From: Subsaximicrobium wynnwilliamsii
GTDB taxonomy: Bacteria; Bacteroidota; Bacteroidia; Flavobacteriales; Flavobacteriaceae
Assembly (NCBI RefSeq): GCF_007997225.1
Contig: NZ_VORM01000020.1
Span: 1-64,000 of the forward strand
DNA length: 64,000 bases
Reading direction: 5' to 3'
Made by a program: the position numbers and the translations under genes. The notes under the pieces are model-generated. The model worked only from the letters and a program-made list of their open reading frames with translations. It was not told the origin of the DNA and searched no databases. Below, in pieces: positions 34,785 to 64,000 of this stretch. Position 1 is the first letter of the stretch, and the number at the start of each line of letters is the position of its first letter.

Positions 34785-34793
34785 ATTCGATAA

Positions 34794-44377: not shown

Positions 44378-44389
44378 AAACCGCTTCAA

Positions 44390-45133: not shown

Positions 45134-46735
45134 ATGAAGAAAACCCACAAGTTAAGTGTATTCCTGTTAAAACCCTACGTAAAAAAGTTCAAGGATGCCA
45201 TCAAGGAAGAAGTTAGGGATTATTATGAATATAAAATAAAAAAACAAACAGAAGCTGATGGATTGATTATAATTGGAAGTACCAGGTCAAACTCACCTTC
45301 GTGGGAACAATTACTTCAGCAGGGCGTAGAGAAAAAAATAATAACACTTCAAAATGCTTCCAATCGTGCCGTTTTATTTTTTAGAGTCAAAGAAAGAATT
45401 TTTGTAATAACCTTCGGTTATGGCAAACATATAATCAAATAAGAACTTATAGAAAGAGACTTTGGATTGCGAACCGCATTAAATCTCGTGGATTCAGAAA
45501 AATTCATTAGCGTTGATAAAGCAAATCTCAGCGATATGGGTTTGTTGACCAAAATGCAATCCAGCAGAAAATCAAAGCCTGAGGCCTTTAATCTTGATGT
45601 AGTAAGTGATTTGTTAAAGGGTGTTACTGGAGGTTTAGCAAAGGGCTCTAATGATTTGGGTACCATGATTACAGGAAATGAGGGCGTATATCTTTCACCG
45701 AAAGTCAATTTTAAGGATATTCCAGAAAAGTTGAGAAAATTGTTGAAGGCCTATAAAAGCAATAAATACAAAACAAACTTTGATTGGATTGATAATCTAA
45801 AGGAGGAAAAAAACCCTTCGACAGTTGAGGAGTTAAGAGCATTGTTAATTGCAGCACTTAAAAAACAAGACACTACTAATATACATTTAGCGTCTCCAAA
45901 TATTATTGATTGGGAATCCTATGAAGGATATGCTTATTCTGAAGTTGCCGATGACCTTAAAATGGATTTGGACATTTCAGATTTCTACGCTTACAAGAAT
46001 GATAAATTAGAAGATTTGGATTGGAATACCCTAAAACGCCTTTCCATTTATTTGAAATATGCCAACAATGAGTTTAGAATATCGGCTCCATTATGGCGGT
46101 TTATAAATTTTGAAGTCAATCGAAAAGGTTCAACCTACGTTTTCACACTTGGCAAATGGTATCATATCAACAAGAACTATATTGAGTCAATTCGAGAATA
46201 TGTTAAAAACGTTGAGGAGTCAAATTTAGTATTCTTGAAATGTCCAAAGAATTTTAGCGAAGGAGACTATAACGAATCATTGGCCAAATCTAAAAAGGAC
46301 TATTTACTATTTGATAAAAATTTGGTCAAATCAGATTATTTTAACCGTTCTCATATTGAAGTCTGCGATGTGTTGTCGATTTTAAATAAAGAATTTATAC
46401 ATGTTAAGCCAAGATCAAGTTCGTCTACCTTAAGTCATCTCTTTGCGCAAGGTAGAGTGTCGTCTATCGCTATTTTAAGGGATAATAGTTTTAGGAAAAA
46501 CTTAAGAGCAAAATTAAAAGCATTGGGAGCGGAAATGGATTTTATCCCATTGGATAGGAAAAAATTAAAACCCTCTGATTATACGATTACGTTCGCCTTG
46601 ATTGATAAAAGAGACAGGTCTTTCATTGATGCGTTGCCATTTTTTAGTTTGATAAATTTTCGATTAACGCTGGAAAATCTTCAGGAACAGGGTTTCAAGG
46701 TAAAGATCAAGAATATTCTACGAGAATCAAGCTGA
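45134..46735 (+). pseudogene. TIGR04141/DUF6119 family gene with one in-frame stop
   Basis: A 102-codon frame (KPYVKKFKDAIKEEV...FVITFGYGKHIIK) and a 422-codon frame (ERDFGLRTALNLVDSEKFIS onward) are in the same phase. They are separated only by TAA at 45440-45442. Together they match the sporadically distributed TIGR04141 family (GYG motif, DFGLR, VKNVEESNLVFLKC), which often occurs in defence islands and is of unknown function. The total length, about 533 codons, is normal for the family. The stop is either a recent mutation or a base error. Confidence 0.78.
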
Positions 46736-46959: not shown

Positions 46960-47427
46960 ATGAAATTATTTAAAAAAACACTTTTAATCCTTGCAATTTT
47001 CGCAGGTTTTACTTTTCAATCCTGTAGTTCAGATGATGATTCGGGTTCACAAAATGATGACACTTACATTAGGTTTACCGCTGGAGGAGAAGATTTTAAT
47101 TATGCAGATCCCGCAACGGCAGGTTCTCAAAATTTGACGATAAACGGTCAAAACGGAAACGACAACACGGTTTCTACCTATTCGTCTGTTTCTATCTGGT
47201 TTCCGCTACAAATAACGACAGGGACTTATGATTTCTCTGGTGATTTTTTTCAGGATGGTGACTATAAGTTAAATCTTGAATCTACCGCATTGAACCTTGA
47301 TGGATGGTCTGAAACAGGCTCTGTGATAATAACTGCGATATCCTCAGATTATATTGAAGGTACGTTCACAGGAACTATAGAGGGCGTGGCTATAACCAAC
47401 GGTGAGTTTAGGGCTTTTAATTTGTAA
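46960..47427 (+). CDS. Predicted lipoprotein, 155 aa
   Basis: The signal MKLFKKTLLILAIFAGFTFQSC ends in a lipobox with SSDDDSGS after it. The mature domain is all-beta (TYIRFTAGGEDFNYAD, GTYDFSGDF, YIEGTFTGTIEGVAITNGEF), like small beta-sandwich lipoproteins of Bacteroidota. It precedes the large operon by 25 bp and may be its first gene. The specific function is unknown. Confidence 0.78.
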   Translation: MKLFKKTLLILAIFAGFTFQSCSSDDDSGSQNDDTYIRFTAGGEDFNYADPATAGSQNLTINGQNGNDNTVSTYSSVSIWFPLQITTGTYDFSGDFFQDGDYKLNLESTALNLDGWSETGSVIITAISSDYIEGTFTGTIEGVAITNGEFRAFNL

Positions 47428-47452
47428 ATAATTATCCAATATAAAACGGTAT

Positions 47453-50400
47453 ATGAGCTTCTATTTTTTTACAGAACCATTAAAATTGACCAATCAAACT
47501 GAATATCAGTCCTTTGGAGCAATAGATGAAAATAATTATAGGTTGGGAAATATGTTTTCTATCAGTTCTGATGCAAAAGCATTTGCTATTACCGATGGTT
47601 TGATATTGGTTCAGCAAATTGGAACTACAGATAGGTACAACATTATTCTAAAACCTAGTGTTGAACCAGATTTGAATCTTCCGAAGATTAGCTATATTAT
47701 ATATAAAGGAATAAAGAAAAGTAGTTTGATTTCTGGAGATAAAGTTGCGGCTCCAATAAATAATGATCTTACAAAATTTATTCATGCAAGTGCAGAACAA
47801 TGGTATGCTGCTGATGGAGTTCCAGTTCCTGATACCGAACCAGCGGCTAGTACATCCTTAGGTCTAGAATATTCCGCAAGTAATCCAGACACAGAATTTA
47901 CAACAGAGGATCCTGACGAGCTGGATAAAGTATTTTATTCATCAGATTCTCTTACGCTCCCATTTGCTTTCGCAAGTAATTATATTGGAGATTTTGATAG
48001 CTCAGGAGATATTGGGTTAACTATAATTTTTGAAAAAATCGGGTACAGGCCAACCTTCAAAATTGCTAGAGAACTTGATTCTATAATGACATTCGACCCA
48101 CTAAGTGGTTCTCCGACCCAAGCTGAATCTTTTGCATTGAAAGATAAGAAAGAAGTTGTGCTTAGCTATATAGATTCTTCTGCTTTTTTTGGTGCTTTTA
48201 ATGGCTTAGGACTTAAAGTTTTTAATGGCACAGGTTTTACAAATAAAAACGGTGATGCCTTGTTCAATGATGTAATAAGTAAACATTTTAATAAAAACAG
48301 CATTTACTTGGATATAAGAAATGAATCTAACGACTCGTTTAATTATTTAGAAAACTACGGAGATACTATCAAATTGAGCTTGGATAATTCAACTACTTTC
48401 ATTCCGCTAGATTATACCAGAAATAATAAATGGCCCATACTTTTAATAAATGACACGGCTCCTGATAGCGAGTTTTCTGAGAATAATACGAATAAAATCA
48501 TTAAGGTAAATTTACCAAGAGGGGACAATGAAATCCCGTTAGTCTATTATAAAAGAGCTTTCAAAAACGATTTGGGACTTGTACTTCCCGATGGTAAAAA
48601 GCAATTTCTAACACCCGCTATAGAAGATGAAGAAACATCTTTTGAAGAAATTATTCCATACGTAACAAATGGTAGTGCTAATTCAAACTATTTTCAACTT
48701 AGATATATTAGGCGTGTTAGGAATAATGAAAACCCTATTAATAATTTTCCTACAAAAGGATTTAGTATTTTTCAGAATGGCTATTTAGATGGATTGTTTC
48801 CAATTTTTGATATGGCCATTCCTTTCGAACAGGATTCAGGTAAAAGTTATTCTAAAATTTATTATGATGTTAAGTTTATTGATAAAGCAAATATCAACGG
48901 AAACCAGTTTACCGCTAATTTGGGTATAGGCAAGGATAGTGTATATACAACATTTATTTCCTATCCTAGCAACTATAATCTTAACATTCGTCAAAACAAT
49001 GACGATAAGATTCCGCTAAGTGGTTTTGAAGGGCCGGTATCCAGTCTTTTCTTATTGGAGTTGAATAATCAAATACAGTCCATCAAAATAGTAAAAAGCG
49101 AGTTTAAGATAAACGGTTCAGTACAAGAGTACATAAGATTTGAGAATCAAACTACTTTTTCGGATACTGAAACTGAAAACTATACTTTTGAAGATGTTTC
49201 TATTTTGGCCTTAACCAATCAGGAATTTCAAGATTTGGAGCAACTTAAAAATCAGGAATTCCCAGTTGATTATAAGGTTAACTTAGGGGTAACGAATATC
49301 GAGGTAGGTACTGATGATGAAGGTAAAGCCTATACAAAATTCGAGTATGTTTTAAGGGGGCTTAAAGAAGATGGAAGTGGTAATATCGTTAGACATAGCG
49401 CCTCTCCTTCACCTGCCATGGTAGTTTATACTGACGAAAAGGTTTTGGGTTCAGAATATGTTCGAAATTATGAAGAGGCTATTGGCTATGATAATTTTCA
49501 AGATGCAGCTGCTGGTTTACGGTACGAAGATTTTTTTATTAATAAGCAGCCGGGGATTAAGAGAGTGGTTGACGATTTTATTAATGAATTATATAATTCC
49601 GAGTCATCGAGCACTCTATTTTTTGATGCAATTAAATCTTTGGTTTCTATTACGGGTAAAACATTATGGAATACAGCTGTAAATAGTGTTCAGGCCAATT
49701 TAAATAGTCCTGATGACAGACCCTTATATTGGGCTAGGCTTAAAATAGCAGTGTTTATAAAACAACATCCTTTATTTAAAGGAGATATTGATGTGAATTC
49801 GCGAGTGATAGAGGACTCCGATTTAAGTCAAATTATTTCACTTTTTGAGGAGACAAGTAGAAACTACACTGGAGTGAATTTTTCTTCTGCTGGTACTGCC
49901 AAGAAAATTTTAGTAGTTGGTTTTGACCCTTTTTTTCTTGATGAGAACAATCCTGTTTTATCAGGTTCTAGTAACATATTACATAGTAATCCATCTGGAA
50001 TATCTGTGCTTTCAATGAATAGTATTAATACTGCTAATGGAATTGGATATATTCAATCGATGATTGTACCCGTTCGCTATACTGATTTTGATTCAGATTT
50101 AAATCCAAGTATGGGTGAAGGCAAAGGAATAATTGAAAATTATATAGGGAAGTTGCTAAACAACGTTGATATGATCATAACTCTAAGCCGTGACGGTGCT
50201 CCAAGCGATTACAACATAGATAAGTACGCTACTCAGAATAGAGTAGGGAACGTTCCTTGTAACCTAAATTTTGTTAGAGAGCCAGACAGCGACTCTATTA
50301 CAGATACATCCAAATGGATTGAATCAAATTTGCCTAATGAGCTTGTTTTAAGCCCCGAAGTGGAATTTGATTTCACATATGTTGATAGTACTGGCATTAC

Positions 50401-50653
50401 TAAAGATGGAAGCGTAGACGAACCTGACCCAAATGAAAAGATGACACGAGGCTCAGGAGGTTCTTATTTATCTAATGAAATATTTTATCGTGTTGCAAGA
50501 CTTCGAGAAATGATTAGCATAGACAAGCCCAAAACAGGGCATTTTCATGTTTCAAAATTTCAGGAAGCAAATGAAGATTTGATTTTCTCAAGAGCGAAAG
50601 CCTTAGTTGATATTGTAAAGAAAGCTATAGATGATGGAGCAACAGGTTTATAA
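47453..50653 (+). CDS. 1066-aa protein with C-terminal pyroglutamyl-peptidase-like (C15) domain
   Basis: No signal peptide is visible. Residues 1-800 are beta-rich and unrecognised. From Lys817 the sequence follows pyroglutamyl peptidase I: KKILVVGFDPFF, NPSGISVL, a VPVRY strand, NVDMIITLSRDG, IDKYATQNR (the Glu-R-x-A-x-N region) and GSGGSYLSNEIFY (the AGTxxCN region), ending with GHFHVSKF. The nucleophile position is Ser1007 where the family has Cys; His1032 is kept. The domain is either an altered hydrolase or inactive. The stop overlaps the next gene, a lipoprotein, by 23 bp. Confidence 0.7.
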   Translation: MSFYFFTEPLKLTNQTEYQSFGAIDENNYRLGNMFSISSDAKAFAITDGLILVQQIGTTDRYNIILKPSVEPDLNLPKISYIIYKGIKKSSLISGDKVAAPINNDLTKFIHASAEQWYAADGVPVPDTEPAASTSLGLEYSASNPDTEFTTEDPDELDKVFYSSDSLTLPFAFASNYIGDFDSSGDIGLTIIFEKIGYRPTFKIARELDSIMTFDPLSGSPTQAESFALKDKKEVVLSYIDSSAFFGAFNGLGLKVFNGTGFTNKNGDALFNDVISKHFNKNSIYLDIRNESNDSFNYLENYGDTIKLSLDNSTTFIPLDYTRNNKWPILLINDTAPDSEFSENNTNKIIKVNLPRGDNEIPLVYYKRAFKNDLGLVLPDGKKQFLTPAIEDEETSFEEIIPYVTNGSANSNYFQLRYIRRVRNNENPINNFPTKGFSIFQNGYLDGLFPIFDMAIPFEQDSGKSYSKIYYDVKFIDKANINGNQFTANLGIGKDSVYTTFISYPSNYNLNIRQNNDDKIPLSGFEGPVSSLFLLELNNQIQSIKIVKSEFKINGSVQEYIRFENQTTFSDTETENYTFEDVSILALTNQEFQDLEQLKNQEFPVDYKVNLGVTNIEVGTDDEGKAYTKFEYVLRGLKEDGSGNIVRHSASPSPAMVVYTDEKVLGSEYVRNYEEAIGYDNFQDAAAGLRYEDFFINKQPGIKRVVDDFINELYNSESSSTLFFDAIKSLVSITGKTLWNTAVNSVQANLNSPDDRPLYWARLKIAVFIKQHPLFKGDIDVNSRVIEDSDLSQIISLFEETSRNYTGVNFSSAGTAKKILVVGFDPFFLDENNPVLSGSSNILHSNPSGISVLSMNSINTANGIGYIQSMIVPVRYTDFDSDLNPSMGEGKGIIENYIGKLLNNVDMIITLSRDGAPSDYNIDKYATQNRVGNVPCNLNFVREPDSDSITDTSKWIESNLPNELVLSPEVEFDFTYVDSTGITKDGSVDEPDPNEKMTRGSGGSYLSNEIFYRVARLREMISIDKPKTGHFHVSKFQEANEDLIFSRAKALVDIVKKAIDDGATGL

Positions 50654-51371
50654 GTTTTGTATTTTAATATTAGTTTTTGTAACGATGTTTTTTGGATGCA
50701 AATCCAACAACAATGGGCAAATTCTATCAATCGACAAACCGCAAATGCGTCAACCCAAAGATAAAAACGCTTTTAGTGTAATAGCTTTTAGACCTTTATT
50801 TGAAGGTGTTATAAATAAAGAAAAATATGAATCATATTGCCTTGATGTAGTGAAAAATACGACTGAGCCTCCCTTTTTTAAAAGTTTTGTGTATGATGAT
50901 TTATATATTGACATCGTTGCACCAACTTTTCACAAAAATTATATAGGGCCTGATTCAAATGATGGAAGTAGAAACATAGTACGAATTATGCAATCTGAAA
51001 ACGTGATGAATATAGTTTTGGATGATTCATTCATTGGAGATTATCATATTTATATTGACAGTCTAACCTTCAAAGAGGGTAGTTTTTACTTTGATTTAGC
51101 GAACAAAAAATTTAGAAAAATCTCATTAGAAGGTAAATTAAAGACTCTAGAAAAGTGGAAATCATCAGAAGGTTTGTTGAATGAGGAATGTATCAATAAA
51201 ATACCATTGTACAAGGTTATTGACAGTATTTCAGACAAAAACCTTATCCAAGATATGTTGAGTTTAGATTTCATCAAAGTATCCCAAGATGATTTGGTAA
51301 CCTATGACGTTTTATATAATCGTAGAGAGAAAGAACGAATTCGAAAAGCAAGATCAAAGAATAAAGGTTAA
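50631..51371 (+). CDS. Predicted lipoprotein paired with the C15-like protein
   Basis: This 246-aa product has an N-terminal signal ending MFFGC (Cys about residue 23). It begins inside the 3' end of the 1066-aa gene (23-bp overlap), so the two are translationally coupled. The body is alpha/beta with a basic tail (YNRREKERIRKARSKNKG). No family is recognised. Tight coupling to a large enzyme-like protein suggests a partner or immunity role; this is inferred from context only. Confidence 0.7.
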   Translation: MMEQQVYKFCILILVFVTMFFGCKSNNNGQILSIDKPQMRQPKDKNAFSVIAFRPLFEGVINKEKYESYCLDVVKNTTEPPFFKSFVYDDLYIDIVAPTFHKNYIGPDSNDGSRNIVRIMQSENVMNIVLDDSFIGDYHIYIDSLTFKEGSFYFDLANKKFRKISLEGKLKTLEKWKSSEGLLNEECINKIPLYKVIDSISDKNLIQDMLSLDFIKVSQDDLVTYDVLYNRREKERIRKARSKNKG

Positions 51372-51396
51372 AAAGATTACTAAATAAATAAGAAAA

Positions 51397-53250
51397 ATGA
51401 TTGCAGTAACAGATACGAGTGCATTTGCAGCTTTGGAAATTGTCCAGCCCCAAGTTCAGTCTTTGATTCCTTCAGAGAATGAAATTGAGACGTTAATTGG
51501 GGCAAATACATTTGTAAATGCAACCATAACTACTGCTTTCAAAAATCTTCTGAAAAGAATAAGCCTTGAATCGATTAATCCTACATTAGGCTTTGCCTTA
51601 CAACCTGATCTAATATTGGTAAAAGTGTCCCAAATGTTCAATAGAATAGGGTTCTATTATGACGCCAACAGCATGTTGAGTTTTTCAACAAACGACAATG
51701 CTTTATCTGCTGGAACAGAAATGATAATTGATGAATTAAATGATTTCACAACATTTCAAGAAATAGCCTACTATGCTTTTCATAACAATGGTTGGGCTCA
51801 AAATGCTAACAATATTAGAGCTATGGAAAACTCAGGGTTGCAAAAATTACATTATATAACAGTTTTTAGTGATTCAAATGCCAATTCAACGTATAACTAT
51901 ACGCCTAACTTAAATAATCAAATAAATATTTTAAACTTAAGAAATGAAAATACTCAAAGATTTTTGTTGATTGGTTTTGATAATGCAACAGATGCCAATC
52001 CAAAGATGCCTAATGTAAGAATATCTAATAACTCAGATGTTCAATTAAAACTGAGAGTAAAAGTTGAATATAATAAATATGTCACTAGTCCACAAAATCG
52101 CTTAGGTGGCTTTGGGCCAGCAATACCTTATGATTTAAATAATAACGGCACAATTGCAACTAATGAGAGAATTTATTTTAATAGGCGTTTTCTAGATTAT
52201 TTCCCAAATGAAACAAATGCTACCGATATTGAAGGAGATATATTTACTAGAGTTCTTCAGCCACAAAGTTTTTGGGACATTGATTGTGATGATAGAGTTA
52301 GAGGAGGCGAAGTAACTATTGATTTTTTTCCAGAGCCAGAAAATATAAATTTTTGGAGGGATGGAAATCATCATTATTTTAAGTTTCATATAAGAGGTAA
52401 AAACCCTACATATCTACAAGTGGAAAATTACTTAACGAATCAAAACTACTTAGGAAGGTTTTGGTTTATGGTAAGGAAAATTCGTCAAGAATCAGGTTCT
52501 TTGGGTACTAATGATAATTCAGAATTCGAGCAATTTAATGCTCTAGGAAACTATGCATATTCAACAAGAAAAACAACCTTCAGAGGTTTGCCAAATTTTG
52601 GAGTTCCAAGAGGTTATGGTCTTTCTCAATTAGATAATTTTGGTGGACCATTAACAGATACTCAAATAAATAATTTAGGACTTACAAATGAGTTAGCTGA
52701 AATACAAAATGGTGCTGAACGGGAGTTTTTAACAATTATCGACGAACAAAATAGGGTGATCGATTCTACTAAATGGATAGTAGCATCAGATCAACAAGTG
52801 TGGCATTGGAAAGAGAACATTGATAAAGCAGTTAATTTTTTGGAGACAGAAAAGATGACTATTACTATAAATGAAATAACCAGAATTAGAGATAGAGTAA
52901 TTGCATGGAATAATGCTAACCCAACAGATTTAGTGGTCGTACCTACTCCAGAGTATTATAATACTATTATTTATTGTTGGACAGCAAGTGCTATTACAGA
53001 ATTTGTCCCGTATAATAATCTTTTTAATCAAGGTACTGCACCAACAATTGTCGACCAAGGTGAAAGAGAATTAAAATCATTTTTCGATGCTATGCTTCTC
53101 AAAACATATAATGGTATTCCAAATCAAGAACATTTTATGGACATAAATAATGCCTCTAGCAATGAATTAGTAAAACCAGTATTAACAATCTATAATACAA
53201 CAAATCCTAATCCTTTTTATGTAAGAAGCCTATCCAATAGAGATGATTAA
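51397..53250 (+). CDS. 617-aa protein with lysozyme/transglycosylase-like segment
   Basis: There is no signal peptide. The N-terminal 400 residues are unrecognised. From about 355 to 490 the sequence resembles phage-type lytic enzymes: ESGSLGTNDNSEFEQFNALG, then GVPRGYGLSQLDNFGG (Gly406 region), then WHWKENIDKAVNFL (Trp469-Trp471). The pattern G-Y-G-(I/L)-x-Q-L followed by W-x-W-K-x-N is typical of lysozyme-fold segments in phage and secretion-system cargo. It overlaps the following lipoprotein gene by 8 bp. A peptidoglycan-cleaving role is inferred. Confidence 0.6.
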   Translation: MIAVTDTSAFAALEIVQPQVQSLIPSENEIETLIGANTFVNATITTAFKNLLKRISLESINPTLGFALQPDLILVKVSQMFNRIGFYYDANSMLSFSTNDNALSAGTEMIIDELNDFTTFQEIAYYAFHNNGWAQNANNIRAMENSGLQKLHYITVFSDSNANSTYNYTPNLNNQINILNLRNENTQRFLLIGFDNATDANPKMPNVRISNNSDVQLKLRVKVEYNKYVTSPQNRLGGFGPAIPYDLNNNGTIATNERIYFNRRFLDYFPNETNATDIEGDIFTRVLQPQSFWDIDCDDRVRGGEVTIDFFPEPENINFWRDGNHHYFKFHIRGKNPTYLQVENYLTNQNYLGRFWFMVRKIRQESGSLGTNDNSEFEQFNALGNYAYSTRKTTFRGLPNFGVPRGYGLSQLDNFGGPLTDTQINNLGLTNELAEIQNGAEREFLTIIDEQNRVIDSTKWIVASDQQVWHWKENIDKAVNFLETEKMTITINEITRIRDRVIAWNNANPTDLVVVPTPEYYNTIIYCWTASAITEFVPYNNLFNQGTAPTIVDQGERELKSFFDAMLLKTYNGIPNQEHFMDINNASSNELVKPVLTIYNTTNPNPFYVRSLSNRDD

Positions 53251-54457
53251 AAATAACATTAAAATATTAATTATTGTCTTATGTATTACTACTTGTAAAA
53301 AGCAAGAGGATATAAATTCACGTCAATTAATTTCTGACTTTAATCTTGAGAGTACATATGTAAATTACAGAAATGGTATAAAACAAACTTCTAATGGGTA
53401 TTCAAAAGACTCTACGCTTATTTTTTCTTTATATGAAAATAACAAAACGAGTCATTTTCTTTACATAGTTCAGAATAAAAAAAAGGATACCATATTTAAA
53501 TTTTTTGATAGCACAGCATTTGAATTAAAAATTCGAAACTTCGATAAGATTAACAGAAACTATTTTGTGACTATTTGGGAACCTTCTCCCCAAAAGTATA
53601 TTGGATATCAAACTGGCTACAACATTGAATATGATCTTTATCAAGATTTATATACTTATGACTCGCTAAATATTTATTTGATCGATAGTACGTGCAGTAA
53701 ACTAACAAAATTAAGCAAACCTACAAATAAAAATATTTCTAATACTTTTAAAACAACTTTTAATTTAAAGGGCGAATTTGAAGTAATAAAAAATGATTCT
53801 GAGATTAGGATGGTTAAAGATACTTTAAGGAATAAAAAAGTACTTTATCAATCAAATGTAGGGTTAGAGATTGATGATAACAATAATTTAAAATCTCATT
53901 TTTTTAATAAATCAAAAATAAAACTAGATGAAAACAATTTCTCCACTATGAGTGATAGGTTCTTAATTAGTGAAAGCTTAAAAGGGGATATAAATTATTA
54001 TTATAAGTATGATGCTAATTATACCAATACAGGGTTTTCAAGGATCGATTTTATTTTTAAACAAAACAATAAAGAGCATATTATACAAACTACTCTAGAT
54101 AGATTATTTATTAAGGATAAAGAATATAAATTTAAGAATATTGATTCCTTAAGTTCATTACAAATAGAACCGTTCAAATATAAAAATGGAGACTATTTTT
54201 TTTATGTCACTCAACAGTCTTTTGAAGAAAGAAGTGATAATTTTCCCATCATCTTTTATATAGATACGATAAATTGGGAAATTGAACGAGTTAAACCTCA
54301 TAGCATTGAAGCTAGTATAAAGAACAAGAAACTGATAGAAATTTATAAGACTGAAATTTTATCAAATAATCATAATAGCATCTTAAAATTTATTTTAAAA
54401 GATTTTGAAATAGCAAGAAATAATGATGGATTTGAATTAATAAAAATAAAACAATAA
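53243..54457 (+). CDS. Predicted lipoprotein paired with the lysozyme-like protein
   Basis: This 404-aa product has a short signal with Cys about residue 18 (LIIVLCITTCKKQED). The body is beta-rich and very AT-rich at the DNA level (many Asn, Lys and Ile). It starts within the last codons of the 617-aa gene (8-bp overlap) and its stop shares one base with the next ATG (TAATG), showing translational coupling. No family is recognised. It repeats the layout large protein then lipoprotein seen just upstream. Confidence 0.68.
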   Translation: MIKNNIKILIIVLCITTCKKQEDINSRQLISDFNLESTYVNYRNGIKQTSNGYSKDSTLIFSLYENNKTSHFLYIVQNKKKDTIFKFFDSTAFELKIRNFDKINRNYFVTIWEPSPQKYIGYQTGYNIEYDLYQDLYTYDSLNIYLIDSTCSKLTKLSKPTNKNISNTFKTTFNLKGEFEVIKNDSEIRMVKDTLRNKKVLYQSNVGLEIDDNNNLKSHFFNKSKIKLDENNFSTMSDRFLISESLKGDINYYYKYDANYTNTGFSRIDFIFKQNNKEHIIQTTLDRLFIKDKEYKFKNIDSLSSLQIEPFKYKNGDYFFYVTQQSFEERSDNFPIIFYIDTINWEIERVKPHSIEASIKNKKLIEIYKTEILSNNHNSILKFILKDFEIARNNDGFELIKIKQ

Positions 54458-57400
54458 TGCCAGCACCACAATTTTTTCCAGCGTTAAGTAATTTAATTGG
54501 TACTGAAAATCTACCAGAACCAATAAAGTCTGCATTTGACAAAGTTTCTGATAAATTGTTTTACAAAACTTATTATGTAGAAAAGAGTATCTATGGTGAT
54601 ACTGCTTATCATAATTTAGTATTGGTTTTAAAAGGCAATGCAGGTATCAATATTTTCGGTGGTGATGATGGGTTGCAATTACTCTTTAACCCTGGTACTT
54701 CAGCTAATACCATAGAAATTCCAATAGCACTATATTATAGACTGCCCATTTTAAAGTATTTACGAAGAATTACTTTAAATGAGCTCAGTACAATTGAAGA
54801 TTACTTCAATCTAATTCTTGAGATGTTTGGTATATCCAAGCCAGAATTGGTTTTTGAAGCTTTCGATATTTTTTTAGATGGATATGATGATACGGTACTC
54901 GCTTTTGTGAACCAGTTTAATGCTAATTCAAATTATAGTGAATATCAACCATTGCCACTACCACAAACTGGGAATCAGTTTTCAGATATAACTGAACTAA
55001 TTTCTTTTTTCGAGAGTTTTGGGTTGGATATAAACCTTTATATCCTCGAAACTTATATAGATGGTTCTGACTTAAGTAAGGGGTTTGAAAACATGTCTTT
55101 ACTTTTTGATCGTTTTTTAGGGGAATTCTCCATCGATACATTGATTGATCTCTTCATACCAAGAATCTCAGTCGCATTACAAAGCTTAAATTTAGCATTG
55201 GCTTTTCCGAGAAATATGTTGCAACCTGTAGACGGTCAAGGAAATGTAATTGATGACGGAAGTAAATCGCTACTAACTTATAATGTGGGTAGTCTTCTCT
55301 ATGATACTAAAACAGGTTTCGATTTTATAAACCCTGATACATTTCAACTAACAAGGTCTCAAATAGGTAATTCTGGTTTTATTTTAGAGGTTACTAATCT
55401 TAAATTAGATTTAAAAGATAATACTAATATTCCTGAAGCTGATGCCTATGGATATGGCCCTGAGTTCAAAGGTATCTATGCACAGTCCGCCTCCATTACA
55501 TTACCTAAAAAGTAGTTTGACAATGAAGAGAATAATTCCGAAACCACGGCTGTTTTAACCGGTTATGATATTTTAGTAGGTACCGGTGGTTTTTCTGGCA
55601 GACTGGCTTTAGAAGTTATTGATGTCACTAGTAACCCAAAATTGGTCAAGACCATTGGGTCTAATGGCTTTGAAGTTGGGTTCACAGCTTTCGATATTAA
55701 TTTCAACCGAAATGCTATTGTTGCTTCAAATATTCTTGGACGATTAAAAATACCAAAATTAAAAGACGCATCTGGAAATGACGCTTTAATAGACATTAAT
55801 GGACATCTAAACGAAGAAGGCTATTTTAATTTAACAGCTTCTGAAGTACAGGGGATTCCCTTAAGCCTTTTTGATTTTGTAACCATTAATATTTTAAGTC
55901 TAGAATTAGGTAAAGAAGACGATAAATTCTACATCGGCACATCCTGCGAAATATGGTTTGAGAATCCCATTATGAATAAAATTCTCAACGGACAAAAAAT
56001 AGTGATTCCACGACTTCGTATCTACGACAATGGAAGCATGGAGATTGTAGGGGGTAACAGTTTTATCCCAACCAATATATCCCTCAATTTGGGGCCTATT
56101 GAAATTGCTGTAACAGGAATCCATTTTGGTTCTTACCAGCAAGAACATGATGGTAAAATGCGTAAATATAATTATTGGGGTTTTGATGGCGCTATCAGTT
56201 TAGACCCCTTGGGGATTGATGCACGTGGCGAGGGCGTTAAGTATTATTATACCGTTGATAATGATGAAAAAGATGAAAACGACAATCCTAAGTATTCAGG
56301 CGGCGATTCTTTTTTACGCATTCAAACCATAGAAATTGACTTAGTGATTCCAGGGACTGCCGGACCTGATGCTGCTGTAGCCATAATTCATGGCATGGTA
56401 TCCATCCCAGAACCGGGGGAATCGCAGGAATATATTGGTGAGGTTTCCTTAAAATTGCCAAAAGCTAAAATTGCAGGTAGTGCAGCCATGAGATTGCAAC
56501 CAAGATATCCTGCATTTGTGGTAGATGCTTCTGTGGATCTACCCGCACCTATCCCCATCGGTCCTTTAGGAATTTATGGTTTTAGGGGGTTATTAGGTTT
56601 CCGATATGTTGCGGAGAAAGAAGCAGTAGGTTTGGTGTCTGGTGAAGATACGTGGTATGATTATTACAAATACCCACCTAAAGGTGTGGATATTTCTAAA
56701 TTTAGTGGGCCAGAAAGAACCTCAGATTATGACTTTCCGTTCTCTGTTGGTGCAGGTGCGGTGATAGGCACTAGTTTTGATAGTGGCACTATAATTTCAG
56801 TTCGTGCCATGCTTTTGTTATCGTTACCAACACTCTTTTTGGTAGAAGGAAGGGCCTCCATTTTAAGTGCCCGTTTGGGATTGGACGATAATCGTGAGCC
56901 ACCATTTTTCGCATTTGTTGCTTGGGGCGATAATTCCATTGAAATGGGATTGGGTGCAGATTACCGACTTCCATTGAATAATGGGGAGATCATCGACTTA
57001 TATGCTGAGGTACAATCCGGTTTTTTCTTTAACAATCCGCGTGCTTGGTACGTTAATTTTGGAACTCGTGATAATCCGATAACGGCAAGAGTGCTAACCA
57101 TTATCACAGCGCAATCATACTTAATGCTTTCTGCAACAGGAATTGAAGCGGGTGCTAGGGTTGAGTTTGATCTTAGAAAACGATTTGGTCCTGCTCGAGT
57201 GCGTATTTATGCCTATTTAGAGATGGGAGGCTTCGTTAGTTTTGAGCGCCCTCAAATAGGAGGCTATATTGCTCTGGGCGGAATGATTGATATCAACATT
57301 TGGATTGTTGGGATAACCATTGGACTGGATGCATTATTCTCTGTAGAAGCCGCCAAACCGTTCTTAATCTATGCAGAGATACGCATACGTGTATGTGTAA

Positions 57401-58767
57401 GGATTGTATTTAAGGTTTGTAAAAGCTTTACCGTTAAACTAAAATGGGAGAAATCAGGCGAACTTGATACTCAACCAATTGCGCCCTTGCCTTATAAAGT
57501 AGCAGAGTACACATTAAATCGCACTAAAGAGTTGGTGCAGGGTGTCCACATGCTAACTAATGAATCTTTTGAACTGACACATAAAATTGATTGGGTCAAA
57601 TTAAATCAAGTTACACCCTGGGAGCCAAATCATTCTGAAATCGATGCTATCATTCCCTTGGACACCTATATAGATATTAAGGCTGCCAAAGGCCTTATTC
57701 CCGGAGCTGTATTCAGTAAAATTGGTGGTCATACTGGAGGTGCCGATAATTTTACCGATTTGATTCCACCGCAGCGTGTCGTTCGCGGTGGTAGAGAGAT
57801 TCGTCAGGTAAAACATAAATATTCAATCGAAGACATTGAAATTAAAGCATGGACGGGAAGCAACTGGATGGATTACCATCCTTTTGAGGCCGTGGTAAAG
57901 GCCGAGGACAGGAATTTGGTTAGTAATCTTAGAATAGGGTATTGGCAGCGTACAGGTAATCAGTATGACGCCATACGTTTGTTGGCCACTACGCCATTCT
58001 CATATACCGAGGCAGGAGAGCCTGGATGGTTAGTGCCTGAACAATATGGCATCACACCTTCGGAGTTGTTTTGCAAAAGTGTGCGCAAAGATTACGATTG
58101 TGCCAATGTATTAAACAAGGCTTTGGGAACAACCTATTATCCGCCTACACAATATACAGGGCATTACATTAACGGAGCTTATTTTACATTAGAAGGAAAT
58201 TTTGAAACTTTGGTTACAGTTAATCCTGATGGCACTCAAAATGCAACTATTAGTGAAGATAATTTCAAAATAACGGACACACAAAATAATTTTGATTTTG
58301 CTAAATCGATAGAATTCGATAATGGAAATAGTCTTGTGATTATTTTACAAGAACCAACTTTAGAAGTTAAATTGAAGCTATCAACACTTGCCGAAGGCGT
58401 TACAATAAGATATTACAAATCATTAGGGGTTGAAAATTTTAATCCAATTTATGAGCAAATCCATGAAGACTACAAATCTTCCGCTCAATTGCAACAGGAG
58501 GTTGAGTATGCTCATGAAACTGAATTTATAGCAAAGGTCGTAATTGAACCTAGGGCAAATAGCAATAGTTCAGAAAGTGATTGTGATATATGCAGGTTAC
58601 AAGACCTACTAGAGCAAAAGCTTGAAGAGTGTCTTGAAGATAGAACGAATTTTGGTTTAAACTGTTTAGAAGAATTTGCAGACATTATTGTTAGTTGTGG
58701 TGGTGTTTACGCTGATGAGTGTGATACCGTACAATATTATGATAACATGATAATAGGAAGTCTTTAA
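54457..58767 (+). pseudogene. Giant beta-rich protein gene with in-frame TAG
   Basis: A 352-codon frame (MPAPQFFPALSNLIGTENLP to SASITLPKK) and a second frame to 58767 are in one phase, split only by TAG at 55513-55515 (codon 353). The residues after it (FDNEENNSETTAVLTGYDIL) continue the same style. The protein would be about 1436 codons. It holds long amphipathic beta strands with Gly/Pro turns (PIPIGPLGIYGFRGLLGFRY, GGYIALGGMIDINIWIVGIT). These recall large beta-helix or barrel-like proteins of the DUF6603 type, a weak similarity from memory. A C-terminal Cys-rich segment (SDCDICRLQDLLEQK, then NCLEEF and SCGGVYADECD) follows. Confidence 0.65.
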
Positions 58768-58769
58768 AT

Positions 58770-59651
58770 ATGAGAATAATACATTCGTTATGGACAAAAC
58801 CGATGCTAAAGAATCGTTGGTTTTTAGAAGGTCAAATAGAACCTTCAATTTGGTTGTATGCCTTATCATTTTTATACGCTAAGAAAGTCTCCACAGAGGT
58901 CGTTCTTCATACCGATACAATCGGTAAAACACATCTAAGCTGTATTCCTTATGATAAAATACATTTATCGTTAGATGAGCTAGAAGATGAACATGAAAAG
59001 TTTTGGGCCTTTGGTAAAATTAAGGCTTTAGAGAATGAGCCTTTGGGTAGCATCCACATTGACGGCGATGTTTTTTTTAAATCGAAAGCGGTTATCCCGT
59101 ATTTAAACTTTAAAGACCATGATGTGATCTGTCAAATGGTTGAAGGCGGACATTTATTTAATGAAGGTTATGAAAATCAATTACCCTATTTCGATAACGC
59201 GCTAAAAAATACACATATCCCAGGCTACGGAAACGTTAGGAAAGCCTTTAACTGTGGGGTTTTGGGATTTAATGATTTAGAACTTAAAAATCAATTTTTA
59301 ATCAATTTTAGAACCATGGTTAAGTGCGCTAAGTTAGATAAGGCAATCATGTTTAAAATGGATGGAAAATACGAGCCGAATATTATAATAGAACAGTATC
59401 AGCTTGCAGGACTTTGCGAATTGAATAATTACAAAGTTAAGTTTATCCTTGACCCTGTCGAAGTTGATAAAAAAAATTCTTTAAATATGGTGGCTGAAGA
59501 ATTAGGGTTTGTACATGCTTGGGGCAAAGCAAAATATACTGCAGCCTTTCAAAATAAGGTCAAAGAAAAAATAAAGCAAGTAGATAGCCATTTATATAAA
59601 ATAATTGAAAGACATATAAATATGTTAAACGGTCAAATGATATTGTCGTAA
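58770..59651 (+). CDS. DUF6734-type glycosyltransferase-like protein
   Basis: This 293-aa cytoplasmic-type protein starts MRIIHSLWTKPMLKNRW and has LSFLYAKKVSTEVVLHTD near residue 33. A D-x-D-like SIHIDGDVFF follows at about 93-102, then FNCGVLGF and a C-terminal FVHAWGKAKYTAAF. This order fits GT-A-like glycosyltransferases, and the family I recall is DUF6734 of Bacteroidota. It starts 2 bp after the giant gene. A role in modifying the large operon products or surface glycans is inferred. Confidence 0.68.
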   Translation: MRIIHSLWTKPMLKNRWFLEGQIEPSIWLYALSFLYAKKVSTEVVLHTDTIGKTHLSCIPYDKIHLSLDELEDEHEKFWAFGKIKALENEPLGSIHIDGDVFFKSKAVIPYLNFKDHDVICQMVEGGHLFNEGYENQLPYFDNALKNTHIPGYGNVRKAFNCGVLGFNDLELKNQFLINFRTMVKCAKLDKAIMFKMDGKYEPNIIIEQYQLAGLCELNNYKVKFILDPVEVDKKNSLNMVAEELGFVHAWGKAKYTAAFQNKVKEKIKQVDSHLYKIIERHINMLNGQMILS

Positions 59652-59675
59652 ACTCTAATAAAATATTCAAGTATA

Positions 59676-62630
59676 ATGGGAATTAAAGCTAAAGCAGGTC
59701 AAAAAAACAATGCATGTGAAGCACATATAGCTTTGGCAATAGATGAATCTGGATCTATTTCTGGTTCAGAAATTGATCAAATAAAAATGGGATTGAAAAA
59801 TTTTATCGCTTCCCAATTGAATAATGACAACAGAATCTCCTTAGTTGGGATGTCAAATTCAGATAACGATTTAAGATCTGACAATATTATTAATCAATTT
59901 GTAAATGATTCAACAAAATCTACTTTTGATAATTGGATTTTAGGTTTTAGAAGCAGAAGCGGAGCTGGTATAGGTTCTTCTTCAGCTCATTGGTCTTCTG
60001 CCTTGGAAACGATTCAATCGCTACAAAATCCTCCAGATGTCGTCATTATTATCACAGATGGTTTGTTAGTTGACACCCCAGCTAAGCTTCAAAACCGTAT
60101 AGCAACTGTAAACTCAAATTCTCATATTTTTGTTTATGGTATAGATGAAATAAATAGTTACCCTAACGGAAATAGCCTTTCTCAAACCTTAGATTTTTAT
60201 CTAGGAAGACCCGCTATACTAAGCACCGATAACTCCGATATACTTACTACAGATTATGTGACTATTCCTGATTTTTCAGGTTTAGAAAATGCATTGTCAG
60301 ACCTCTCACAAACATTAATTAATTCTAATATTGGATGTGGTAATCTTGATTTAATTTCAGAAAATATCACCATAGGGAAGTTAAGTTTAAATTGTAGCAA
60401 CGATGATTTGAATGTTGGTACAATTACTATAAGCAGTCAAAAAGCAGTACCCTATGTTATTGAAGCAGATACCCAGATCGCTAATATAAACGGATTGATT
60501 TTTTCATGTGCTATCGCTACCGAAATAGCTCCCAATGGCTCTGGTACTATCGTTCCGGTCAAGGTTAACGGAACGCCTTTCTCAGTCGGATTTCAAGAAG
60601 AATTAATAGCTATTGAAACGGTAAATAATCCAGAGAATTTGAAAATAGAATTTTGTGTTGTAGATAGACAGACAATAAAAAACGGGGAAGTAAGTGCTTT
60701 TATAAAATCCGAGTATGAATATTTTTTGAATTTGCTATGTTTACTTAAACAAAGCAAGTCTGACGAAGAGAAAGGATATACTAGAAATACATTGATTTTA
60801 CAGGCCAGAAATATTTTAAGAAAATTAGAAGAGACCAAACCTTGCGGAAATATAACGACAGTGCAAGAGATTTGCTGGATGACATTAGAAAACCATGAAT
60901 TTAATTCAACTATACCAGGACAAGCAGAGGTAGAGCAGGAGCAAAAGGATATGGTGGCGGCGGTCCAAAAAACCGTACAACCCATTTGGAGACCAAATAC
61001 TAAATATTATATGAGATTTAGGTTAAAGGATGAGGTTAACAATGGGGAATTTGAAGAACAAAATAAGGGGCTGTTTGACTACTATTATGGCTTCAAAACT
61101 GTAGGGCCAGTGGGTCATTATCACAAGGATAGTACAGTAGATTATATTCCTACAGACGCAAACCCAGATCAGTACCCACTAACGTCACTCCGCCAATACA
61201 TTGATTATAACCGTTCCTACCCGAATGCCGATGGCAACTTATTACAGGCAAAACCATTGTTCTATGGAAACAACCAATGTAAGATAACGGTTTATTTCAG
61301 TAAACCATTTACCTACCACATGCTCAATAAATGGCATAGTTATGAAGATAGTGATAGTGGTAATTCATTACCAGAATTAGCGGGTAGTATGCATATTGCG
61401 ATTAAAGACCCAGTAACTGATGTTATAATCCCTTACCCATTACCCGCAAACTTTAGTCAAGAAACGGTGCCTACAGGCCAAACATTTGCTACTTGGATTG
61501 AGTTTAACAGCCAAGAAGAATTAGAATTCAATGAGTGTATTCGTTTGATTGATGTTAATGATAATCCTATAGGAGAGTATTCTATTCTTAAAAAGGACTA
61601 TTTAATTGCCTCAGATACATACCGTTTGAGAATTGATGATGAAGCTGTGTTATCTGATAATTCAGATCTAATAAGTGGAAAAATTAAATGGGAAAGTTTA
61701 GCTGCTGATAATCCAACTGTTGTTTATGAATTTGACATAGTAGCAATTGGAAGCGAAGATGCCAATTGGAATATTGACAATAATCCAAGAATACCCATGA
61801 ACCTGCAACTACTCAATAATATGGTTGAATACATCAATCAAAATAATAGCGCGATTAATTGTGATTTAGAAATTGGAGAACCTATTCTACCAAATAGTTA
61901 TGCATATACAGTTACACTTACTAATTTAAAACCACGTAAGCTTTATACCGCACTTTTGTATAATGCTTTCGATAAAAATAATAGTGGTTCATTACAAGAT
62001 ACAGAGAGCGAAGAAGTGCACCAGTTTGTTTTTCAAACGTCCAGATATAAGAATTTTGAAGAACAAGTAAATAGTTATTGGCTAAGGGAACTAGACTCTG
62101 ATGGAATTGTAGTCAATGAGCAGCAAGCCGTTTTTATAATTCCATTGTCATTATCCGTCGATGAAATCGAAACCGCTTATAACATTGTTGCAGGGATTTC
62201 GGATATTAACAGCGAAAACTTAGAATCGCAATACTACCATTTGTTTGACCGAGCGACAGAGGGTGTATTAGGTATTAGCCCATTTAATCCACCTGAAAAT
62301 ACAGAATTCAATGTATTAAAGAACTTAAATACAGGTCAAACTTTTGGTATTTTAATCCGTAATCCGGAACCATTCAATATCCCTAAAATTCCTTTAGATA
62401 CTATTGAAGATACTGTAAAGGTAGTGTTCGCGAGTTCGGGAAATCCGAATAACACCTATAAGGTCTTACATTCTAAAGATTATTCACAAGTATTGATTAT
62501 GCATGATAGCAGGGAAATTACAGTAGATACGCTAAATTTTAAGTTCTCATATAAAATATGGAACGGTTCAGAATATATTACAAGTAGTGATGTTGTCATA
62601 GACAATATTTTAATAAATATAGAAAACTAA
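59676..62630 (+). CDS. 984-aa vWA-domain protein
   Basis: Residues about 15-215 form a von Willebrand A domain with the MIDAS motif DESGS (Asp23, Ser25, Ser27), a Ser/Thr-rich middle with SSAHWSSALETI and the later Asp in VVIIITDGLL. The remainder is beta-rich and unrecognised, with a helical stretch at about 345-390 and immunoglobulin-like strands near the end. There is no signal peptide. The protein probably binds a metal-dependent ligand or a partner in an assembly. It is 24 bp downstream of the DUF6734 gene and 6 bp before the last gene. Confidence 0.8.
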   Translation: MGIKAKAGQKNNACEAHIALAIDESGSISGSEIDQIKMGLKNFIASQLNNDNRISLVGMSNSDNDLRSDNIINQFVNDSTKSTFDNWILGFRSRSGAGIGSSSAHWSSALETIQSLQNPPDVVIIITDGLLVDTPAKLQNRIATVNSNSHIFVYGIDEINSYPNGNSLSQTLDFYLGRPAILSTDNSDILTTDYVTIPDFSGLENALSDLSQTLINSNIGCGNLDLISENITIGKLSLNCSNDDLNVGTITISSQKAVPYVIEADTQIANINGLIFSCAIATEIAPNGSGTIVPVKVNGTPFSVGFQEELIAIETVNNPENLKIEFCVVDRQTIKNGEVSAFIKSEYEYFLNLLCLLKQSKSDEEKGYTRNTLILQARNILRKLEETKPCGNITTVQEICWMTLENHEFNSTIPGQAEVEQEQKDMVAAVQKTVQPIWRPNTKYYMRFRLKDEVNNGEFEEQNKGLFDYYYGFKTVGPVGHYHKDSTVDYIPTDANPDQYPLTSLRQYIDYNRSYPNADGNLLQAKPLFYGNNQCKITVYFSKPFTYHMLNKWHSYEDSDSGNSLPELAGSMHIAIKDPVTDVIIPYPLPANFSQETVPTGQTFATWIEFNSQEELEFNECIRLIDVNDNPIGEYSILKKDYLIASDTYRLRIDDEAVLSDNSDLISGKIKWESLAADNPTVVYEFDIVAIGSEDANWNIDNNPRIPMNLQLLNNMVEYINQNNSAINCDLEIGEPILPNSYAYTVTLTNLKPRKLYTALLYNAFDKNNSGSLQDTESEEVHQFVFQTSRYKNFEEQVNSYWLRELDSDGIVVNEQQAVFIIPLSLSVDEIETAYNIVAGISDINSENLESQYYHLFDRATEGVLGISPFNPPENTEFNVLKNLNTGQTFGILIRNPEPFNIPKIPLDTIEDTVKVVFASSGNPNNTYKVLHSKDYSQVLIMHDSREITVDTLNFKFSYKIWNGSEYITSSDVVIDNILINIEN

Positions 62631-62636
62631 AAGAAG

Positions 62637-64000
62637 ATGGGTTTTATTAATACTTACAAAATAAGCAATGAAGGGACGAATAACTCCTATACTGATTCTA
62701 TTTCAAAAGAATTTATAGAAAATAGCACCTCTTTTGTATATACAATAGCAAGAACTGCAAATGGGAAATGTCTTTTATCTAAACTAGATATTTTAGGGGG
62801 TATCGTTTGGTCTAAAGAAATTAATAATCAAGATGTAGGTGCAGAACCCCTCTATATTGAAGCTACTTCAACCAATCCTATTCAATATACTGCGATTTCT
62901 AATAATGCGGATTCTGTAAATAGCTTTATTTACTTAATTACATTTGATGTAAATGGCAATATTGTAAAAATAAAAAAATTACAATTTCCTCGCTTTGGTG
63001 GCCAAGAAGGTGTTCATGTGCAATATTATAATAATTATTTTTTAATAGCTTATAATAAAAATGTTATAAAAGTAAATAGCGATGGAGTCGTATCTAACAT
63101 ATGGCAATTCTCAAATCAAAAATATGCTGTCGGTCCTGCATTTTCATTTTTTGTAGATCCGATTTCAGGTTATATGTTGTCTTTTCATCAAGTTTTTCAA
63201 GATGGTGTGGCTTATCTTGTATTAAGAGATGAAAACTTTGTTGTGGTAGAAGAAATTCAACTATTATATCCTAATGCTTCTAGTGGATCTGTACCTGCTG
63301 ATGCTGTATTTAAAAAAGCAAATAATACTTATTATTACTATTTTACAATATCTCAAGATTTTAGCAATATTAACAGAGAGGTCTGTATGGTAAAAACCCA
63401 AAATGCTCAAATTACATATCAAAAAATAATCCAATTACAAAAAAATAGTAACTTATTAAGTAATTTTACATTAGTAGATAATCATATATATTTTCATAGC
63501 TTTTACGGAATTATGAAATTATCTACAGATGACTTAACTCTTTTGTGGACAAAAAAAATAAATTCTTTTAATCAAATAATAAGATTAATTTACAATTCCA
63601 GTACATCAAATATTACATGTATCTACAATGATTTTTCTGGTGATTATAATTATAATAGCAAAGCTTTTCTTGTAGATAAGGAACTCAATAGTTGTCTTAC
63701 AATTTTACAAGACGTACCAACCTTAAATTCAGGCGTAATAGGCTTTTCAGTAACTAGCGATTTCGCTAAATCTGATGAATTAATTATTACTAGTGAATCA
63801 ATTTCTAACGACCTAACAAATGTCGAATTGATTATTGATGAATTGTGCCCTCCATCAGGAAGTGGTAATTATAATTTAGAAAAAAGCGCGATTTTTGCAA
63901 ATCCCGGAACAATCACGGCTGATGGCATAGATGCCTCTTTTATTACCGTTCAGTTGAAAGATAGTTCAGAAAATAACATCACGGTCGGAGGGGAAGCTGT
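62637..64000 (+). CDS. Large repeat protein with Big_1-like domain, 3' end outside window
   Basis: The frame opens at ATG 62637 (MGFINTYKISNEGTNNSY), 6 bp after the vWA gene, and stays open for 454 codons to the window edge. Residues 1-405 look like a beta-propeller: repeated strands with VYTIARTANGKCLLSKLD and LDILGGIVWSKEI. From about 412 a bacterial Ig-like (Big_1/invasin) domain begins (SAIFANPGTITADGIDASF, then ITVQLKD). No signal peptide is visible. It is probably a long extracellular or assembly protein of the same operon. Confidence 0.75.
   Translation, partial: MGFINTYKISNEGTNNSYTDSISKEFIENSTSFVYTIARTANGKCLLSKLDILGGIVWSKEINNQDVGAEPLYIEATSTNPIQYTAISNNADSVNSFIYLITFDVNGNIVKIKKLQFPRFGGQEGVHVQYYNNYFLIAYNKNVIKVNSDGVVSNIWQFSNQKYAVGPAFSFFVDPISGYMLSFHQVFQDGVAYLVLRDENFVVVEEIQLLYPNASSGSVPADAVFKKANNTYYYYFTISQDFSNINREVCMVKTQNAQITYQKIIQLQKNSNLLSNFTLVDNHIYFHSFYGIMKLSTDDLTLLWTKKINSFNQIIRLIYNSSTSNITCIYNDFSGDYNYNSKAFLVDKELNSCLTILQDVPTLNSGVIGFSVTSDFAKSDELIITSESISNDLTNVELIIDELCPPSGSGNYNLEKSAIFANPGTITADGIDASFITVQLKDSSENNITVGGEA

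What the first reader, a model, noticed from the sequence alone, without database searches (positions are those of the whole stretch)
46960..64000. Tightly coupled operon of giant proteins and lipoproteins: candidate undescribed system
Eight plus-strand genes follow each other with overlaps or gaps of 2-25 bp. They encode a C15-like protein, a lipoprotein, a lysozyme-like protein, a lipoprotein, a beta-rich giant, a DUF6734 glycosyltransferase-like protein, a vWA protein and a Big_1-type protein. The large proteins lack visible signal peptides, so they are either cytoplasmic assemblies or exported by a dedicated route. I recognise no described operon with this composition.
Basis: partly seen in the sequence, partly recalled or inferred. 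Interest (0 to 1): 0.8.

Follow-up and report, generated by a model that had tools for sequence, protein, structure and literature searches.

The report
Giant-protein toxin–immunity locus of Flavobacteria
A long bacterial operon looks like an undescribed weapon against other bacteria: swappable toxins with matching antidotes, two giant proteins and phage-like fibres, although the copy in this window has one giant gene interrupted.

Summary
The finding holds up. The operon (46960 to about contig position 70.2 kb, past the window end) is one copy of a conserved Bacteroidota locus: N1 (toxin carrier), toxin and immunity genes, giant G1, giant G2, phage-fibre-like genes. A genome scan gave 88 relatives, 80 held; G2 follows G1 in 72 of 75 loci with room. 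By sequence it is a polymorphic toxin system: carriers keep their N-terminus and swap C-termini (EndoU, WHH, peptidase C15), followed by immunity-like genes. The gene after N1-fused, c7 or 617-aa-type toxins has an export signal in 28 of 29 cases, after the c4 carrier in 0 of 24. The window's two lipoproteins after its two toxins are the predicted immunity proteins. N1, G1 and most of G2 match no Pfam, NCBIfam or PDB family by sequence. Contractile machines are associated but not required: 27 of 50 carrier genomes have a sheath hit, 23 none. The window's G1 is split by an in-frame TAG (55513-55515); 79 of 80 relatives have one ORF across both pieces. Toxicity, assembly and delivery are inferred, not shown.

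The parts
46960..47427 (+). small lipoprotein-like ORF (155 aa), optional; similar ORFs in L083, L102 and G041
47453..50653 (+). N1 toxin carrier, 1066 aa: conserved N-terminal ~640-700 aa (LytM-like fold in residues 1-~250) plus a C15-like C-terminus, predicted periplasmic toxin
50631..51371 (+). lipoprotein, 246 aa, predicted immunity protein of the N1 toxin
51397..53250 (+). second predicted toxin, 617 aa: first ~55 residues shared with Kordia proteins at the same place, rest divergent; lysozyme-like by eye only
   Evidence: no support
53243..54457 (+). lipoprotein, 404 aa, predicted immunity protein of the second toxin
54457..55515 (+). giant G1, N-terminal piece (352 aa), ending at the in-frame TAG 55513-55515
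55516..58767 (+). giant G1, core piece (open frame 1083 aa, first listed start TTG 55642): amphipathic beta strands and a carbohydrate-binding-module-like domain
58770..59651 (+). DUF6734 protein (293 aa) lying between two parts of G1; one relative (L041) also has a DUF6734 gene in the locus
59676..62630 (+). 984 aa: vWA domain plus the C-terminal part of G1 of relatives
62637..64000 (+). giant G2 (2131 aa in all, ends at contig 69032): Big_1/invasin domain and a conserved ~1600-aa C-terminal part; a fibre-like gene follows outside the window at contig 69108-70238

Best explanation
This is a polymorphic toxin-immunity locus with its own giant-protein apparatus, aimed at related Gram-negative bacteria. 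Shown by sequence: carriers with constant N-termini and swapped C-termini; an immunity-like gene after nearly every carrier; two giant proteins (G1, G2) in fixed order behind them; and, in most loci, fibre genes with a phage-type N-terminal module. Inferred: the proteins, which lack signal peptides, assemble in the cytoplasm into a soluble particle that leaves by lysis or an unknown route; the fibres bind a target cell; G1, whose residues ~240-600 are strongly alternating beta strands as in outer-membrane barrels, opens or crosses the outer membrane; N1-fused, c7 and 617-aa-type toxins act in the periplasm, while c4 carriers, with hydrophobic segments, take their toxins on into the cytoplasm. 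In this window both predicted toxins are of the periplasmic kind, matched by two lipoprotein immunity proteins. The copy may be impaired because G1 is interrupted by an in-frame stop.
For: Order N1 - toxin/immunity - G1 - G2 - fibre across the 80 held loci: G2 downstream in 72 of 75 with at least 3 kb held, N1 upstream in 50 of 67 with at least 7.5 kb held. Polymorphism: of 25 c4 pairs with at least 55% identity in residues 1-700, 20 have under 30% or unalignable last 150 residues; N1 of L044/L052 77% against 24%; conservation drop along c4 and long N1. Toxin domains among 41 C-termini at E up to 0.01: EndoU 4, Peptidase_C15 2, WHH 1. Among 142 intervening genes: SMI1_KNR4 3, SUKH_6 2, SUKH_5 1, Toxin-deaminase 2, EndoU 1. 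Export signal in the first gene after N1-fused toxins 15 of 16, after c7 12 of 12, after the window's second toxin 1 of 1, after c4 0 of 24 (Fisher p 3e-14; 13+5+1 exported gene clusters against 15, none shared; 5 loci without an intervening gene left out). Hydrophobic 19-mers in c4 16 of 23, c7 5 of 15, N1 3 of 54. c7 profile matches peptidoglycan-binding domains in the PDB (best E 1e-5). Fibre module in 44 of 55 loci with room; best phage match E 6e-8. G1 strands 241-603 alternate with z 8.1, 0 of 2000 shuffles.
Against: No toxicity, immunity, assembly or secretion was measured. The export route is unknown. The G1 model is middling (pLDDT 73.7, pTM 0.48) and a closed barrel is not shown. Most toxin C-termini match nothing in Pfam, and several of the 8 families are weak single hits unrelated to toxins. 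Three c7 proteins gave no Pfam family. Many of the 142 intervening genes are not immunity genes: Y1 transposase 14, phage fibre repeats 8, MORN 5, RHS 4. Toxin/immunity concordance is incomplete: first downstream genes similar in 6 of 20 c4 pairs with similar toxins against 6 of 256 with dissimilar ones, N1 2 of 21 against 0 of 84 (pairs not independent). 11 of 55 loci with room lack the fibre module. Sheath genes are enriched in carriers, which would also fit an eCIS-linked function.
Confidence: 0.75

Rival explanations
1. It is an accessory toxin locus of extracellular contractile injection systems (eCIS): the carriers are eCIS effectors, and G1, G2 and the fibres are eCIS parts working in trans.
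For: eCIS genes lie beside the locus in 3 of 80 loci (L027, L028, L030). Sheath profile hits in 27 of 50 carrier genomes against 55 of 299 family genomes, Fisher p 3.5e-7, or 51 of 294 without known carriers, p 1.3e-7. With the Pfam sheath model 14 of 30 against 15 of 100. The own genome has an eCIS gene set on contig C67. The fibre module matches a gene in the G018 eCIS locus (E 1.4e-8 among 97 proteins).
Against: 23 of 50 carriers have no sheath hit; 16 of those 23 also lack a hit to the Bacteroidota-type T6SS TssC, among them the genome of L057, whose record is titled a chromosome. G1 and G2 seem too large for a tube lumen (inference). The enrichment was not controlled for genome size or genus, and some carrier genomes are drafts or MAGs.
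Confidence: 0.2
2. G1, G2 and the fibres form a surface or extracellular adhesion complex, and the toxin-immunity cassettes merely accumulated next to it.
Against: No signal peptides in the large window proteins; the order carrier-immunity-G1-G2 is kept in distant genera; N1 is nearly always on the same strand just upstream when room allows.
Confidence: 0.1
3. It is a degenerate prophage or phage-tail remnant.
For: Phage-type fibre module and C-terminal domain, endolysin-like amidase.
Against: No G1 or G2 match in 50,697 phage records; one G1 relative in the IMG/VR scan, apparently the same Kordia sequence as L095; no PHROG hit at E up to 0.01 for N1, G1 or G2 in the window; conserved giants with polymorphic toxin cassettes.
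Confidence: 0.03

Closest known systems
Polymorphic toxin systems (Zhang et al. 2012, PMC3482391: abstract, sections 37 and 41 and search passages seen)
   Same: Constant N-terminus, swapped C-terminal toxins, toxin-then-immunity gene order, strings of immunity genes, SUKH; a pyroglutamyl-peptidase family is named there among toxin domains (passage)
   Different: None of the delivery routes listed in the abstract is recognisable here; the N1, G1 and G2 proteins are not mentioned in what I read
TANFOR-domain toxins of Bacteroidetes (PMC7073777: abstract and passages seen)
   Same: Bacteroidota polymorphic toxins with a shared N-terminal domain
   Different: Most of them have an N-terminal signal peptide and are proposed T9SS substrates; N1 has no signal peptide and no family match
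Extracellular contractile injection systems (PMC8213781: passages seen)
   Same: Environmental bacteria, toxins, fibres; association and occasional adjacency
   Different: No sheath or tube gene on the window contig; 23 of 50 carriers lack a sheath hit; immunity genes are usual here, whereas that paper reports them missing for most eCIS toxins
DUF6603 proteins (Pfam PF20248) and a Mycetohabitans plasmid giant named DUF6603 in RefSeq
   Same: The Mycetohabitans giant is a clear relative of G1 (hmmsearch E 1e-62; hhalign 100%)
   Different: Neither G1 nor that giant matches PF20248 in Pfam scans
Tc toxin complexes (recalled)
   Same: Large signal-less complex idea with interchangeable toxin end
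   Different: No TcA, TcB or RHS-cocoon domain found by Pfam in N1, G1 or G2

Membership tests
Polymorphic toxin system | Conserved N-terminus with interchangeable C-terminal toxin region | tested here: met
   c7 shows no such polymorphism
Polymorphic toxin system | Immunity-like gene directly downstream (toxin-immunity order) | tested here: met
   53 of 58 carriers counted have an intervening gene of 80 aa or more before G1 or the next part; 5 have none
Polymorphic toxin system | Known toxin and immunity domains | tested here: met
   only a minority of proteins match
Polymorphic toxin system | Toxicity neutralised by the cognate immunity protein | not testable with these tools
   needs expression experiments
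eCIS | Sheath, tube and baseplate genes in the locus | tested here: not met
   own-genome sheath hits are on contigs C67 and C110, not on the window contig C46; adjacency in 3 of 80 relatives
T6SS (Bacteroidota type, TssC PF17541) | TssC in the genome | tested here: not met
   own genome no hit; 8 of 34 carrier genomes tested. Other T6SS types were not searched
TANFOR toxins | N-terminal signal peptide | tested here: not met
   no hydrophobic leader in N1 (crude scan); the TANFOR domain itself was not searched by a model of its own
DUF6603 | Match to PF20248 | tested here: not met
   (own genome no hit)
Peptidase C15 | Catalytic cysteine in the Y-x-C-N type motif (motif recalled) | tested here: not met
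   the window and both Kordia copies have YLSN there
M23/LytM peptidase | Conserved zinc-binding histidines in N1 | tested here: not met
Outer-membrane beta barrel (G1) | Closed transmembrane barrel | tested here: inconclusive

The most novel reading that the evidence does not exclude
A new class of toxin-delivery particle of Bacteroidota without tube, sheath or signal peptides, built from two giant proteins (one with a membrane-crossing beta sheet, one invasin-like) and phage-type fibres, which delivers interchangeable toxins to two compartments, the compartment being set by the carrier protein: N1-fused and c7 toxins to the periplasm, c4 toxins to the cytoplasm.
Probability: 0.45. Interest if true: 0.92.

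Novelty: new variant of a known kind. Interest (0 to 1): 0.8.

Why it matters
Classes of polymorphic toxins are defined by their delivery route, and the route here is not among those named in the survey that I could read. If true, Flavobacteria and other Bacteroidota carry a recurrent antagonism system in which the carrier protein, readable from sequence, tells which compartment the toxin reaches. It supplies directly testable genes (N1, G1, G2, fibres), many candidate toxin-immunity pairs, and a role for a set of giant proteins that no family database names.

Tried and rejected

Sequences used of those at hand: A6 (G1) 43 of 81, A4/A7 (N1) 47 of 54, A5 (G2) 26 of 73; the Pfam scan of intervening genes 140 of 192 plus the window's two; carriers tested for a sheath 49 of the 80 loci plus the own genome; for TssC 33 loci plus the own genome (the 23 sheath-negative ones and 10 positive ones).

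Literature searches (open-access PMC only). None of the titles and abstracts listed describes this locus; DUF6603 and DUF6734 gave no paper. Papers opened: PMC7073777 (passages), PMC3482391 (abstract, sections 37 and 41, passages), PMC8213781 (passages). Nothing is claimed about print outside these searches.
Full report
What is there. The window is bases 1-64000 of an 87,556-bp contig (C46) of a 4.9-Mb genome, in the same family as the genomes of Kordia periserrulae and Luteirhabdus pelagi (identified by matching contig lengths). The giant is not intact: an in-frame TAG at 55513-55515 splits it, and stretches that form its C-terminal part in relatives sit behind the vWA domain of a later ORF. 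Beyond the window lie the rest of the 2131-aa G2, a fibre-like gene, an Amidase_3 gene, a patatin gene and genes of a mobile element.

It is a conserved locus. The G1 core was found in 5 of 199 family genomes, the own genome included and one only a fragment, and in 6 of 395 genomes of the phylum, own included. A scan of the species genome collection with two conserved peptides gave 88 relatives, of which 80 were held; they come mostly from Flavobacteriaceae-type genera (Flavobacterium, Chryseobacterium, Kordia, Tenacibaculum, Aquimarina, Dokdonia and others), with single records titled Bacteroidales, Cytophagales, Flammeovirgaceae and Sediminibacterium. In these loci N1 comes first (36 of 676-797 aa, 18 of 948-1471 aa including the window), then toxin and immunity genes, then G1 (75 ORFs of 1,566-2,989 aa), G2 and fibres. 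79 of 80 loci have an ORF matching both window pieces of G1. G2 follows on the same strand in 72 of 80 (72 of 75 with at least 3 kb held). N1 precedes in 55 of 80 (50 of 67 with at least 7.5 kb held); in the other 17 the held flank often ends inside a long gene array or a cut carrier.

It looks like a toxin-immunity system. Where N1 is short, a second large protein follows, of one of two families, c4 (23 members of 850 aa or more) or c7 (15 of 900 aa or more). Majority-residue conservation along c4 is 0.30-0.50 up to column 850 and 0.22-0.25 after it; along long N1 it falls from 0.30-0.55 to 0.24-0.30 after column 700; c7 shows no such drop. Of 25 c4 pairs at least 55% identical over residues 1-700, 20 are under 30% identical or unalignable over the last 150. 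Among 41 C-termini Pfam finds EndoU in 4, Peptidase_C15 in 2 and WHH in 1, besides five weak single hits. The intervening genes (142 scanned) include SUKH-type immunity families and orphan EndoU and deaminase cassettes, but also Y1 transposases (14), phage fibre repeats (8), MORN (5) and RHS (4). Tandem paralogues occur, such as five copies of a 367-368-aa gene in L042. Swapped C-termini, toxin-then-immunity order and strings of immunity genes are the marks described for polymorphic toxins (PMC3482391, sections 37 and 41 read).

The compartment rule. The first gene after the last carrier has an export signal in 15 of 16 cases for N1-fused toxins, 12 of 12 for c7, 1 of 1 for the window's second toxin, and 0 of 24 for c4; 5 loci without an intervening gene were left out, and minus-strand ORFs of the same loci score 22 of 66. 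Fisher p is 3e-14, and the genes fall into 13, 5 and 1 exported clusters against 15, with no cluster shared between carrier types, so this is not one lineage counted many times. The export test is a hydropathy rule of my own, not SignalP. c4 proteins carry a hydrophobic 19-mer in 16 of 23, c7 in 5 of 15, N1 in 3 of 54. The c7 profile matches peptidoglycan-binding domains of solved structures (best E 1e-5), while three c7 proteins gave no Pfam family. The simplest reading is that N1-fused and c7 toxins act in the periplasm, and c4 toxins in the cytoplasm, of a Gram-negative target.

The window copy. N1 (1066 aa) ends in a C15-like domain, 51-52% identical over the C-terminal 426 residues to those of two Kordia loci; the recalled catalytic cysteine is serine in all three. 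The lipoprotein after it is its predicted immunity protein. The 617-aa protein shares its first ~55 residues with the Kordia proteins at the same place and diverges after them, which suggests a further polymorphic carrier; the lipoprotein after it is the second predicted immunity protein. Both Kordia loci have the same layout of two such pairs.

Relatives elsewhere. A giant on Mycetohabitans plasmids is a clear G1 relative (hmmsearch E 1e-62), next to a phospholipase D-like gene and a 1322-aa gene; an Azospirillum plasmid has a further relative (E 2e-23). Whether the 1322-aa protein is a G2 relative is open.

Link to contractile machines. The own genome has an eCIS gene set on C67 and a sheath gene in pieces on C110, neither on the window contig. 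eCIS genes lie next to the locus in 3 of 80 relatives. Sheath hits occur in 27 of 50 carrier genomes against 55 of 299 family genomes, p 3.5e-7; with the Pfam model 14 of 30 against 15 of 100. Since 23 of 50 carriers have no hit and 16 of those 23 also lack the Bacteroidota-type TssC, such a machine is apparently not required. The systems may share ecology, fibres or release.

Limits. Toxicity, assembly and delivery are not shown. The export route is open. Whether the TAG is a true stop is open. The locus set is dominated by Flavobacterium and Chryseobacterium, and flanks were cut at 10 kb.

Noticed in passing
window 30009-31238 and contig C46 77214-78245 (L002 17214-18245): Tyrosine integrase upstream and a DUF5712 gene (mobilisation-type by recall) downstream: the locus may lie in an integrated mobile element.
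   Followed up: partly
window 34113-39278: Cap4-nuclease-like protein next to a 1494-aa STAND/AAA NTPase-like protein: resembles an anti-phage defence pair.
   Followed up: partly
window 16037-18601: TPR-CHAT protein, 854 aa.
   Followed up: no
window 42374-45052: Histidine kinase with TPR repeats and a response regulator; relatives of both lie in L101 and in the G018 eCIS locus, of the regulator also in L077 and L084.
   Followed up: partly
window 45467-46735: DUF6119 protein (422 aa, E 5e-107) directly upstream of the operon.
   Followed up: no
own genome contig C110 18564-20151 (L134): Second contractile-sheath-like gene, lying in two overlapping ORFs, near a 1769-aa ORF.
   Followed up: no
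L024 13720-26741 and L025 8720-21264: Mycetohabitans plasmids with a three-gene set: 1322-aa protein, phospholipase D-like protein, G1-like giant of 2337-2496 aa.
   Followed up: partly
gene arrays of the held Flavobacterium loci: Y1 (IS200-type) transposase genes recur among the intervening genes, 14 of 142 scanned; perhaps a motor of cassette exchange.
   Followed up: no
G018 C2:645976-662647 (L130, L131): A true DUF6603 protein followed by unknown proteins of 1200, 1919 and 612 aa at the start of an eCIS locus.
   Followed up: partly
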